Assembly: GCA_009835985.1 (NCBI GenBank)
Contig: VXWI01000036.1
Span: forward strand, 1-64,000
Direction: 5' to 3'
Length of the DNA: 64,000 bases
Origin: Acidobacteriota bacterium
GTDB lineage: Bacteria > Acidobacteriota > Vicinamibacteria > Marinacidobacterales > Marinacidobacteraceae
The position numbers and the translations under genes were made by a program. Positions 457-53,954 of the stretch are shown one piece after another (positions within the stretch are counted from its first letter, which is position 1; each line of letters opens with the position of its first letter). The notes under the pieces are model-generated. The model had not been told where the DNA came from. It did not search any database and saw only the letters and a list, made by a program, of their open reading frames with translations.

Positions 457-648
457 GCGATGCCGGCCGGAGGCCGGCGCTCCGAGCCGTGCGGGTCGTC
501 TCCGCCGCGGAGCGCCACGCCGAGGTGGGAGCCATCCTTCCGGGTGGGGGTTGCGACCTGCGCGCTGCGGAGCACCGCGCGTGCCGGCTGAAGCCGGCGT
601 TCCAAGCCGCTGCGCGTGCCGGTCTGAAGGGCCCCACCGGGAGAACTG
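457..648 (+). repeat. REP/BIME-like cluster A (three modules, includes CCCCACCGGGAGAACTG at 632-648)
   Basis: GCGATGCCGGCCGGAGGCCGGCGCTCCGAGCCG (457-489), GCGCGTGCCGGCTGAAGCCGGCGTTCCAAGCCG (577-609), then GCGTGCCGGTCTGAAGGGCCCCACCGGGAGAACTG; the modules recur elsewhere in the window. Confidence 0.8.
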
Positions 649-665
649 CCCGGCGGTCCCGGCGG

Positions 666-11676: not shown

Positions 11677-11909
11677 GGCTCGAACTCGGAGCGCCGGCCT
11701 CTCGCCGGCGGCCAGTTCTCCCGGTGGGGGCCGTGGCCGCAGGCCGCGAAACGCACGCCTCAGCCGATTCCCATGGCGTGATCCCAACCAGGAACCGCTA
11801 CTCGGCTCCCGAAACGAGCCGAACGTGGGCCCCACCCTCAAGGGCAGGAGCGCCATCAGCGCGGGTTTCGCGCTCCCGCGCGATGCCAGCCGGAGGCTGG
11901 CGCTCCGAA
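11677..11909. repeat. REP/BIME-like cluster B (two modules in opposite orientation)
   Basis: 11677-11730 is the reverse complement of CCCCCACCGGGAGAACTGGCCGCCGGCGAGAGGCCGGCGCTCCGAG; 11860-11909 contains GCGATGCCAGCCGGAGGCTGGCGCTCCGAAG. Confidence 0.8.
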
Positions 11910-17333: not shown

Positions 17334-17385
17334 GAACGCCGGTCTTCAGACCGGCACGCGCGGCGCCCCCCACCGGGAGAACTGG
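17334..17385. repeat. REP/BIME-like module C
   Basis: Inverted repeat GCCGGTCTTCAGACCGGC followed by CCCCCCACCGGGAGAACTGG between glyS and mutL. Confidence 0.75.
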
Positions 17386-21265: not shown

Positions 21266-21315
21266 GCCCCCACCGGGAGAACTGGCCGCCGGCCAGAGGC
21301 CGGCGCTCCGAGCCG
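21266..21315 (+). repeat. REP/BIME-like module D (composite)
   Basis: CCCCCACCGGGAGAACTGGCCGCCGGCCAGAGGCCGGCGCTCCGAGCCG between recO and mgtE. Confidence 0.82.
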
Positions 21316-34673: not shown

Positions 34674-34737
34674 GGGCGCCGCATTCTACCGTCGGGGGGG
34701 ACGGTTCGGGCCCGCGCGGGCCGGAGGCGGCACTTAA

Positions 34738-34872
34738 CAGCCTGTGGCAAAACCCACGCGGCGTTCGACGGGCGATGCATACCGGCTGAACCGCACCTCT
34801 GCGAGGCGCTCTGCGTTGCGTTTCGGTCGGAATACACCCGGTATTCCTCCCTCACGCGCCTTGTCAGCCGGA
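34738..34872 (-). repeat. Truncated copy 2 of MITE-like element (opposite orientation to 52468-52650)
   Basis: CAGCCTGTGG...GAGGCGCTCTGCGTTGCGTTTCGGTCGGAATACACCCGGTATTCCTCCCTCACGCGCCTTGTCAGCCGG matches the reverse complement of 52468-52650 at roughly 90% by hand alignment over ~134 bp; lacks the distal ~45 bp. Confidence 0.88.
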
Positions 34873-34891
34873 CCCCCACCGGGAGAACTGG
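34873..34891 (+). repeat. REP-like leader motif E (CCCCCACCGGGAGAACTGG)
   Basis: Exact 19-mer, abutting the truncated MITE-like element. Confidence 0.75.
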
Positions 34892-34965
34892 GCCTCGCCC
34901 GTCTCGGCGCTCACGTGGGTTTCACCACCGGCTGTTGAGCGCCGCACCGCATAGAATCGTGGGCC

Positions 34966-47571: not shown

Positions 47572-47678
47572 GCGCGGGTCTCGGGCTCCCGCGCGGCCCC
47601 CACCGGGAGAACTGGCCGCCGGCTGAAGCCGGCGTTCCAAGCCCCCGCGCCATGCCGTCCGGAGGCTGGCGCTCCGAG
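47572..47678 (+). repeat. REP/BIME-like cluster F (composite plus second module)
   Basis: CGCGGGTCTCGGGCTCCCGCGCGG hairpin, then CCCCCACCGGGAGAACTGGCCGCCGGCTGAAGCCGGCGTTCCAAGCC (47597-47642), then ATGCCGTCCGGAGGCTGGCGCTCCGAGCG. Confidence 0.82.
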
Positions 47679-50927: not shown

Positions 50928-51875
50928 TCAGTCACCCGGCGTCTCGCGAAACGCGACGATCTCGTCGAGCCGCGAAGCTCCGAGAGCCGCCATGACCAGG
51001 CGGTCCACGCCCAGCGCCACCCCCGAGCAGCGCGGGATGCCCGGATGCTCGAGGGCAGCCAGGAATCGCCCGTCGGGGTGGGCGGCGGGCTTTCCGGCCC
51101 GCGCCCGCGCCCGGTTCTCGGCCGCGAAGCGCCGGCGGTGCTCCTCCGGGTCCTGCAACTCGTCGTAGCCGTTCGCGAGTTCGAGTCCGGCCCAGAAGAC
51201 CTCGAATCGCTCCGCGGTCCGGGAATCGTCGTCGCTCAGCCGGGCGAGCGCCGCCAGGGGAGCCGGAAACCGGGTCACGATCGTGGGGACCCCCGCCCCG
51301 AGACCGGGTTCCACGAGCCGTGAGAACAGGTAGTCGAGGGCCGCGGCGCGGTCATCGGGACGACCCGGGTAGCCGTGCGCTTCGGCCAGCGTCACCAGGC
51401 GGTCCTCGGCCGCCGTCAGCGGGTCCACCCCGGCAGCGGCGAGGAAGAGCTCCCGGTAGGTGCGCCGCTCGGCCGGGAGCGTGCCCAGGATGTCTCCCAG
51501 CAGCAGGTCCATTTCCGTCAGCAATCCATCGAGCGGACCCATGCGGTACCACTCGGCGATCGTGAACTCGACCGCGTGGTGCCGTCCCGACTCCCCCGCG
51601 CGAAACGCCTTGACGATCTGGAAGATGGGACCGCTTCCCGCCGCCAGCAGGCGCTTCATGGCGAACTCCGGCGAGGTGTGGAGGAAGCCCCCGGCCGCGG
51701 GCACCGACTCCAGATGCCGATCGGGTGTGGCGTGCGGCCCGAGGATCGGGGTCTCGACCTCCAGGTAACCCCGGGCGGTGAGAAAGGCCCGCAACCGGGC
51801 GACGAGTCCGGAGCGCTCCCGCAGGTTCCCGAGGGACGCGGCGGGGCCCCACCCGGGACTGCCCGTGCCGGTCAG
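50928..51875 (-). CDS. epmA: EF-P--(R)-beta-lysine ligase (EpmA/PoxA/GenX)
   Basis: [92 protein letters not shown] start at 51875 proposed by comparison with the EpmA N-terminus. Confidence 0.9.
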
Positions 51876-52444
51876 TTCTTTACCCGGGAAACGTACTCGC
51901 CGGTGCGGGTATCCAGGCGGAGCGTCTCGTCCACCTCGATGAACAGGGGCACCCGCACGACCGCACCGGTTTCGAGGGTCGCGTTCTTGGACCCCCCGGT
52001 CGCCGTGTCGCCGCGGATCCCGGGTTCGGTCTCCACCACTTTCAGGTCCACGAAGTGCGGCGGGTGAATGAGGAGGATCGCGTCGTTGTAGAGCGTGACG
52101 CCGCAGGTCATCCCCTGGAGCAGCCACTTCTCGTGGCCGCCGAGCGCCGATTTCGCCGCCGAGTACTGCTCGTACGTGTTGGGGTCCATGAAGTGCCAGT
52201 CGCCGCCGTCGCTGTAGAGGAACTCCATCTCGGTGTCGAGCACGTCGGCCGCTTCCACTTTCTCGCCCGACTTGAACGTCTTGTCGAGGACCCGGCCGGT
52301 CTTGAGGTTCCGGTAGCGGATCCGGGTGAACGCCTGCCCCTTCCCGGGCTTCACGAACTCGCAGTCCAACAGGACGCACGGATCGGAATCGAGCAGCACC
52401 TTGAGCCCGCTGCGGAACTCGTTTGTCGCGTAGGTGTTGGCCAA
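51872..52444 (-). CDS. efp: Elongation factor P
   Basis: [72 protein letters not shown]. Start codon is TTG (52444) with GAAGGGAG upstream. Confidence 0.96.
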
Positions 52445-52467
52445 GGAATCGCTCCCTTCAGGGGTCT

Positions 52468-52650
52468 AGCAGCCTGTGGATAAAGTGGCGTGAGTACCGA
52501 GAATGCCGAGGCGCCCGGCTGACAAGGCGCGTGAGGGAGGAATACCGAGTGTATTCCGACCGAAACGCAACGCAGAGCGCCTCGTAGAGGCGCGGTTCAG
52601 GCGGGATGCATCGGCGTTCGAATGCCGCGTGACTTTGTCCACAGGCTGCT
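52468..52650 (+). repeat. MITE-like element, full-length copy 1 (~183 bp)
   Basis: Terminal inverted repeats AGCAGCCTGTGGATAAAGT / ACTTTGTCCACAGGCTGCT (18/19 paired) and internal stems GGAATAC-N5-GTATTCC and GCGCCTC-N3-GAGGCGC; second copy at 34738-34872. Confidence 0.88.
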
Positions 52651-52718
52651 GGGTGGCCCGAATCGTACCAACGGGGGCGCGGCGCGCGGTCGGCGGTGCC
52701 CGAGTGGAGCCGACGGTC

Positions 52719-53954
52719 CTACACCTCGGTCAGGAGGTGCCCCATGCGCTCCTTCTTGGTGCGCAGGTACTCGCGGGAGTACTTGTTCGCCGGAACCTCG
52801 ATGGCGACCCGCTCCTCGATCACGAGCCCGTGGGCCTCGAGCGCGACGAACTTCCGCGGGTTGTTGGTCAGCAGACGAATCCGTCCGACGCCAAGGTCCC
52901 GGAGAATCTGGGCGCCGACGCCGTACTCGCGCTGGTCGGCCCGGAAGCCGAGGTGGGTGTTCGCGTCCACCGTGTCGAGGCCACCGTCCTGGGCCGCGTA
53001 CGCCCGCAGTTTGTTGACCAGCCCGATGCCCCTTCCCTCCTGGTTCAGGTAGAGCAGCACCCCGGCGCCCTCTTCCCCGATCCGGGCCAGCGCCGCCTCG
53101 AGCTGCGGGCCGCAGTCGCACCGCAGCGATCCGAAGACCTCTCCGGTCAGGCATTGGCTGTGGACGCGCAGCAGGACCGGCGTGTCCGGCCGGGCTTCGC
53201 CGAGCTGGAGAACCAGGTGCTTGGTCCCGTCGAGGGTGTTCTCGTAGGCGACCGTGCGGAACTCGCCGAACCGGGTCGGTAGTACGGTGGATGCCAAGCG
53301 CCGCACCAGGGACTCGGTGCGGAGCCGGTAGCGGATCAGGTCCGCGACGCTCACGATCGCCATCCCGTGCTTCCCGGCGAAGGCCAGGAGGTCCGGAAGG
53401 CGGGCCATCGTGCCGTCTTCCTTCATCACCTCGCAGATGACCGCGGCGGGGTAGAGCCCGGCGATTCGCGCCAGGTCCACACCGGCCTCGGTCTGTCCCG
53501 CCCGCTGCAGCACCCCACCGGGGCGGGCGCGGAGCGGGAACACGTGGCCTGGCCGGACCAGGTCGGACGGCTGCGTTTCCTCGCGGATCGCGACCTGGAC
53601 GGTCCGGGCTCGATCCGCGGCGGAGATTCCGGTCGTCACCCCATCCCTTGCCTCGATGGAGACGCAGAACGCCGTCTCGTGCACCGAGGTGTTGTCCCGG
53701 ACCATCAGCGGGATGTCCAACTCGTCGAGGCGTTCCCCGGTCATGGGCATGCAGATGAGGCCGCGACCGTGCGTGGCCATGAAGTTGATGGCTTCGGGAG
53801 TGACCTTTTCGGCGGCGATCGTCAGGTCGCCCTCGTTTTCGCGGTCCTCGTCGTCGACGACGATGACCATGCGTCCGGCGGCAACCTCGGAGACCGCCCG
53901 CTCCACCGGCCACAACGCCGTGGATTCGCTCTTTCCCGTGTCAACCACGCGCAC
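52719..53954 (-). CDS. ribBA: Bifunctional 3,4-DHBP synthase / GTP cyclohydrolase II
   Basis: [91 protein letters not shown] start 53954 or 53948. Confidence 0.95.

What the first reader, a model, noticed from the sequence alone, without database searches (positions are those of the whole stretch)
52468..52650. MITE-like ~183-bp element with 19-bp terminal inverted repeats upstream of efp
AGCAGCCTGTGGAYAAAGT forms near-perfect TIRs around a non-coding, multi-hairpin interior. A second copy lies 18 kb away in opposite orientation. There is no ORF with recognisable function inside, so it would be mobilised in trans or act as a structured RNA. It ends 23 bp from the TTG start of efp, so it must overlap or replace that promoter region.
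Basis: partly seen in the sequence, partly recalled or inferred. Interest (0 to 1): 0.6.

Follow-up and report, generated by a model that had tools for sequence, protein, structure and literature searches.

The report
Jumping hairpin repeat of Acidobacteria
A 180-base stretch of non-coding DNA next to a translation-factor gene is one of about 55 copies of a jumping repeat found across Acidobacteria, and unusually evolution preserves the hairpin that one of its two strands folds into, as for a working RNA, although no enzyme that moves it could be found.

Summary
Window 52468-52650 is one of about 55 full or nearly full copies in its own genome, with 7-62 copies in each of seven same-genus genomes, and relatives across an acidobacterial class and beyond. 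It is mobile. Sister species with 98-99% identical EF-P have the empty site. Copies nest. In 88 copies from public genomes, 34 have exact 4-bp duplications (mainly YTAR) and 11 have exact 5-bp ones (CTWAG). The less expected result: the whole element is a long imperfect hairpin whose pairing, rather than its end sequence, is conserved. In distant copies 37 of 59 pairs covary while unpaired motifs stay fixed. In the terminal stem G.T pairs outnumber A.C mismatches 150 to 8, and all 82 intact genus copies fold better on the + strand, so selection sees one strand as RNA (or ssDNA). No Rfam family matches. No insertion sequence sharing its ends was found, and four transposase families tested are absent from the host. 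Best reading: a non-autonomous MITE-like element, moved in trans by an unidentified DDE-type enzyme, whose folded + strand is itself needed. The claim that it replaces the efp promoter is not supported.

The parts
52470..52648 (+). the mobile element proper (179 bp); + is the strand whose fold is conserved
   Evidence: duplication analysis over 88 + 97 copies; empty site in G003 and G006
52466..52469 (.). left copy of the target duplication, CTAG
52649..52652. right copy of the target duplication, CTGG (one substitution from CTAG)
   Evidence: empty site reads GGGGTCTGGTGGCC in G003 and G006
52470..52496 (+). 5' arm of terminal stem P1 (includes the left terminal inverted repeat)
   Evidence: helix 1, 97.8% of cells paired, 13 of 26 pairs change on both sides (counted from alignment column 1)
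52623..52648 (+). 3' arm of terminal stem P1 (includes the right terminal inverted repeat)
   Evidence: helix 1
52501..52522 (+). 5' arm of internal helix 2
   Evidence: 6 of 20 pairs change on both sides
52597..52619 (+). 3' arm of internal helix 2
52529..52568 (+). inner hairpin A with the conserved GCGTGAGGGAGGAATACC..GTATTCCGACC..ACGCAAC motif
   Evidence: helices 3-4; homologous motif fixed in distant copies
52577..52593 (+). inner hairpin B (present in the genus, absent from the 162-bp type elsewhere)
   Evidence: helix 5, 4 of 5 pairs change on both sides
34736..34936 (-). second copy in the window, 201 bp
   Evidence: includes an inserted repeat unit with CCCACCGGGAGAACTGG at 34875-34891
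51872..52444 (-). efp, elongation factor P, whose start codon is 23 bp from the element
   Evidence: Pfam EFP domains
52719..53954 (-). ribBA, the other neighbour
   Evidence: Pfam DHBP_synthase and GTP_cyclohydro2

Best explanation
It is a non-autonomous, MITE-like transposable element with a conserved single-strand fold. SHOWN: high-copy dispersal; recent insertion at this site; insertion into YTAR (usually CTAG or TTAA, often a TAG/TAA stop codon) with a 4-bp duplication, or into CTWAG with a 5-bp duplication in a sub-family; no coding capacity of its own; conservation of a strand-specific long hairpin and of its unpaired motifs. INFERRED: a DDE-type transposase, encoded elsewhere or now lost, cuts and inserts the element in trans. 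INFERRED: the + strand is folded as RNA (less likely as ssDNA), and that fold is needed for the element to be propagated or tolerated, so copies with G.T wobbles survive while copies with A.C mismatches do not.
For: Copies and distribution. Empty site and an independent second insertion in the same gap in G002. Nested copy. Exact 4-bp duplications in 34 and 5-bp ones in 11 of 88 copies, outer/inner agreement above shuffles and the same correlation in the genus. Covariation 25 of 64 pairs and 37 of 59 pairs, 0 of 500 shuffles reaching the score. Strand asymmetry measured without folding: 48 to 4, 150 to 8, 32 to 14 in distant copies. All 82 full-length genus copies fold better as +. Mutation bias excluded at unpaired sites. 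An IS1182-like element in G001 has similar CTAG|GAGCCTGTCC ends.
Against: No partner insertion sequence was found, and PF05598, PF01609, PF13701 and PF13546 are absent from the host. No promoter is conserved inside the element and no transcript is known. The strand asymmetry is weaker in the distant set. On the most recent branches other mismatches (19) are commoner than A.C (2), which simple pairing selection does not predict.
Confidence: 0.6

Rival explanations
1. Ordinary MITE. The arms covary only because several sub-families carry the ends of different transposases, and the arms are kept alike by two-ended recognition or by palindrome correction. The fold has no role of its own.
For: Ends show partly shared consensus positions (AG, CC.GT, AAGT), as insertion-sequence ends do. 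Target duplications are of DDE type.
Against: Two-ended recognition and palindrome correction are blind to the strand, but G.T exceeds A.C 150 to 8. Internal helices covary too. Unpaired interior motifs are the most conserved part. Two copies in one relative (L043) have entirely different terminal stems.
Confidence: 0.22
2. Propagation through a folded single strand: an RNA copied back into DNA, or an ssDNA intermediate as used by HUH enzymes on REPINs. The hairpin is the substrate of the mobilising protein.
For: Strand-specific structural constraint across the whole element. Selection is visible even between copies with 8 or fewer differences. Stem sequence is nearly free. No DDE partner was found.
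Against: 4-5 bp target duplications are not made by IS200/IS605-type HUH enzymes (established knowledge) and are what DDE enzymes make. Reverse transcriptases and HUH genes were not searched.
Confidence: 0.15
3. Host-used RNA element (mRNA stability or processing hairpin, for instance an RNase III site) that happens to be spread by transposition.
For: Copies sit between genes, often directly at stop codons. Correia elements are processed by RNase III (PMC10969869).
Against: In the host most copies are antisense to both neighbours (26 against 4), so read-through mRNA carries the less constrained strand. Insertion sites differ between sister species. Stop-codon placement follows from the YTAR target.
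Confidence: 0.1
4. DnaA-box carrier: TGTGGATAA in the arm is a DnaA box and the repeats titrate DnaA.
For: This copy carries TGTGGATAA and TGTGGACAA in its two arms.
Against: Only 6 (left) and 8 (right) of 97 genus copies keep the 9-mer. The positions drift freely as long as they stay paired.
Confidence: 0.01

Closest known systems
Bacterial MITEs of the RUP / Correia (CREE, nemis) / ERIC type
   Same: Under 200 bp, non-coding, terminal inverted repeats, target duplication, tens to over a hundred copies, insertion into one another, extensive fold (PMC3049150, PMC10969869).
   Different: YTAR (4 bp) or CTWAG (5 bp) duplication; GC-rich; terminal sequence not conserved but pairing is; strand-specific wobble asymmetry; fixed unpaired motifs; class-wide range; no partner insertion sequence known.
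REPINs mobilised by RAYT (HUH) transposases
   Same: Dispersed hairpin-forming non-autonomous repeats with common compensatory changes (PMC3116915).
   Different: REPIN ends are invariant 16-mers with a less conserved spacer (PMC3116915); here stems vary and the unpaired interior is fixed, and there are 4-5 bp duplications. The 17-mer CCCACCGGGAGAACTGG repeat in the same genome is the more REP-like thing.
IS1182 / IS5 family ends (transposases with DUF772 / DDE_Tnp_1)
   Same: CTAG or YTAR target; a similar end CTAG|GAGCCTGTCC in G001.
   Different: No transposase in the element; no such gene in the host; TIR sequence differs.
Structured RNAs tied to mobile elements (IS605 omega RNA / HEARO, IS110 bridge RNA, group II introns)
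   Same: A conserved RNA-like fold tied to a mobile element (own knowledge).
   Different: No Rfam match; those RNAs accompany a protein gene, and this element makes 4-5 bp duplications and has no gene.

Membership tests
MITE (non-autonomous DNA transposon) | Short, non-coding, terminal inverted repeats | tested here: met
   179 bp between duplications, exact arms
MITE (non-autonomous DNA transposon) | Many dispersed copies | tested here: met
   about 55 in the host, 7-62 in same-genus genomes
MITE (non-autonomous DNA transposon) | Target site duplication and empty orthologous site | tested here: met
   45 of 88 exact duplications; empty site in G003 and G006
MITE (non-autonomous DNA transposon) | Autonomous partner sharing the ends | tested here: inconclusive
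   None found in the host or in G030, but draft MAGs can lose multi-copy insertion sequences
IS1182 / IS5 derived MITE | YTAR / CTAG target with 4-bp duplication | tested here: met
   a sub-family uses 5-bp CTWAG instead
IS1182 / IS5 derived MITE | Matching transposase in the same genome | tested here: not met
   PF05598 and PF01609: 0 hits in G000, G002, G005
RUP / ERIC / Correia | 2-bp TA duplication (own knowledge) | tested here: not met
   positions -2/L-1 and 2/+2 also agree beyond shuffles
REPIN / RAYT | Invariant REP ends, no target duplication | tested here: not met
   ends vary with pairing kept; duplications present
REPIN / RAYT | RAYT (Y1_Tnp) gene in the genome | not tested
Known structured RNA (Rfam 15) | Match to a family model | tested here: not met
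   nothing at gathering score on the element or on distant copies
Structured RNA (any) | Covariation and strand-specific wobble tolerance | tested here: met
Structured RNA (any) | Transcribed | not testable with these tools
   no expression data; no sigma-70-like promoter predicted nearby

The most novel reading that the evidence does not exclude
A class of bacterial mobile element that is propagated, or whose propagation is licensed, through a folded single strand (RNA or ssDNA): structure rather than end sequence is the recognised feature, the mobilising protein is unknown, and dozens of copies per genome occur across Acidobacteria and perhaps other phyla.
Probability: 0.3. Interest if true: 0.85.

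Novelty: new variant of a known kind. Interest (0 to 1): 0.6.

Why it matters
Bacterial MITEs are usually seen as inert leftovers defined by the transposase binding sites at their ends. Here the opposite part is conserved: a strand-specific, full-length fold with fixed unpaired motifs, while the ends drift as long as they pair. With tens of copies per genome and compensatory changes visible between copies of one genome, the family is a natural mutagenesis experiment on what makes a small element succeed. It also predicts an unknown mobilising or RNA-binding protein in a widespread, poorly cultivated soil phylum.

Tried and rejected
(1) DnaA-box reading of the arms: the 9-mer is kept in only 6-8 of 97 copies. 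(2) 2-bp TA duplication (IS630 style): rejected because -2/L-1 and 2/+2 agree beyond shuffles and non-palindromic 4-mers recur. (3) C-to-T mutation bias as the cause of the G.T excess: rejected. (4) Replication-strand orientation: both orientations occur within contig C52 and the window GC skew is nearly flat, between about -0.05 and 0. (5) Targeting of stop codons as such: explained by YTAR sites. (6) Autonomous element: a 2.6-kb TIR pair in L068 encloses ordinary host genes, a 1.2-kb inverted pair in L173 encloses a host-like ORF, and unpaired TIRs in G030 are single degenerate or deleted copies. (7) Carriage by viruses or plasmids: no hits in IMG/VR, nothing credible in PLSDB. (8) My first alignment mixed orientations because loci are not turned; redone. 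(9) The orientation bias of 26 against 4 in the host is weaker in genus relatives (24 against 15) and absent in public genomes (23 against 30), so I do not build on it.

Full report
What is there. The element lies between ribBA (52719-53954, -) and efp (51872-52444, -). Its 19-bp arms are exact matches at 52468-52486 and 52632-52650 with none expected by chance. The window belongs to a 3.34-Mb, 124-contig draft genome.

Copy number and spread. Blastn finds 45 matches in the host. A covariance model built from 28 of them finds about 55 strand-consistent copies there. Seven same-genus genomes hold 7 to 62, other members of the class hold up to 44, and many hold none. I did not verify those labels. 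Copies outside the genus are usually 162 bp and lack one inner hairpin.

Mobility. Orthologous efp-ribBA gaps in G003 and G006 read CTTCAGGGGTCTGGTGGCC without an insert, whereas the window reads ..GGGGTCT-element-GGGTGGCC. G002 has an independent copy in the same gap, inserted at the CTAG of the ribBA stop codon. A copy at C52:90050-90232 sits inside another copy. Among 88 copies from public genomes, 34 have identical 4-bp flanks (CTAG, TTAG, CTAA, TTAA, also TCAA, TTGA, TTTA) and 11 have identical 5-bp flanks (CTTAG or CTAAG). Agreement of the outer with the inner position exceeds shuffles. In the genus the same correlation holds, although exact 4-bp duplications are rarer there (11 of 57).

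Target choice. In this GC-rich genome YTAR is rare: 24 sites in 64 kb, of which 10 are at stop codons and 9 elsewhere in non-coding DNA. Insertions exactly at stop codons (15 of 39 in the host, 32 of 72 in public genomes) follow from the target sequence and from gene density. The duplication restores the stop codon.

Structure. The + strand forms a long imperfect hairpin. In the own-genome alignment 25 of 64 pairs show changes on both sides, and the covariation score is 0.261 against 0.124 in shuffles. In 23 diverse 162-bp copies 37 of 59 pairs do, with 0.444 against 0.150, and slid registers reach at most about 0.10. Helices far from the ends take part. Unpaired motifs (GCACCGAG, GCAAGGCGCGA, GAGCAACGC, GATGC, CGAATGC) are nearly fixed while the stems vary. 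This is the opposite of what transposase-bound ends would give.

Strand. If pairing mattered only in double-stranded DNA, G.T and A.C mismatches would be equally common. Using the arms by position alone, without any folding program, the own-genome set has 48 G.T and 4 A.C, the genus set 150 and 8, and the distant set 32 and 14. Single changes between nearest neighbours in the genus are 70 to wobble and 7 to A.C. All 82 full-length genus copies fold better as + than as -, and the consensus energies are -92 and -37 kcal/mol. A C-to-T bias on one strand is excluded: A-to-G wobbles are also in excess and polarised changes at unpaired sites show no such bias. A point I cannot explain: on the most recent branches non-wobble mismatches (19) are commoner than A.C (2).

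Mobiliser. No transposase of families PF05598, PF01609, PF13701 or PF13546 is in the host. TIR scans of the host and of G030 give no IS-sized pair. An IS1182-like element in G001 has similar CTAG|GAGCCTGTCC ends. Collapsed insertion sequences can be missing from draft MAGs, so the search is not closed. No trace was found in viral contigs or plasmids.

Effect on efp. The insertion is 23 bp upstream of the TTG start and leaves the conserved efp leader intact; the block GAATCGTACCAACGGGG, shared with most sister species, stays on its far side. If transcription starts beyond that block, efp mRNA now carries the complement of the element in its leader. No promoter was predicted. This remains untested.

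Comparison. It works like a MITE and meets those criteria except for a known partner. It resembles REPINs in compensatory change (PMC3116915, read) and RUP or Correia elements in size and folding (PMC3049150; PMC10969869). It differs from both in that pairing and unpaired motifs, on one strand, are what is conserved. It matches no Rfam family.

Noticed in passing
window 633-649, 11712-11728, 17369-17385, 21269-21285, 34875-34891, 47599-47615; own genome: A second dispersed repeat around CCCACCGGGAGAACTGG: 99 places in the genome against 2 for the reversed control, often beside GCCGGC hairpins like REP sequences, sometimes near contig ends, and inserted into many copies of the element, giving 201- and 219-bp variants.
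   Followed up: partly
G030 C187:15179, C206:59839, C16:84633, C36:96711, C25:49040, C163:17636, C232:6496: Shrunken elements of about 29-91 bp that keep both arms but have lost the interior, as if hairpins had been deleted by slippage.
   Followed up: partly
L109 2872-3093, L124 5814-6053: Extra hairpin modules (CCCCAGCGCGG..CCGCGCTGGGG) inserted on both sides of the element's stem in distant relatives.
   Followed up: no
L074, L121, L132, L097, L100, L129, L138: Element copies in MAGs labelled Gammaproteobacteria, Nitrococcus, Desulfobacterales and Elusimicrobia, several with exact duplications; either horizontal spread or misbinned contigs.
   Followed up: partly
G005 and G003 efp-ribBA gap (L237, L232): The ends GGCTGCTAG next to the ribBA stop codon look like possible remnants of a lost copy.
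   Followed up: no
own genome C64:45375-45599 (L189) and C81:5758 (L025): Elements or fragments with the same kind of ends (AACAGCCCGTGGAAAAAG, AGCAGCCCGTGGAAAAAGTG) but different interiors, perhaps a second family using the same ends.
   Followed up: partly
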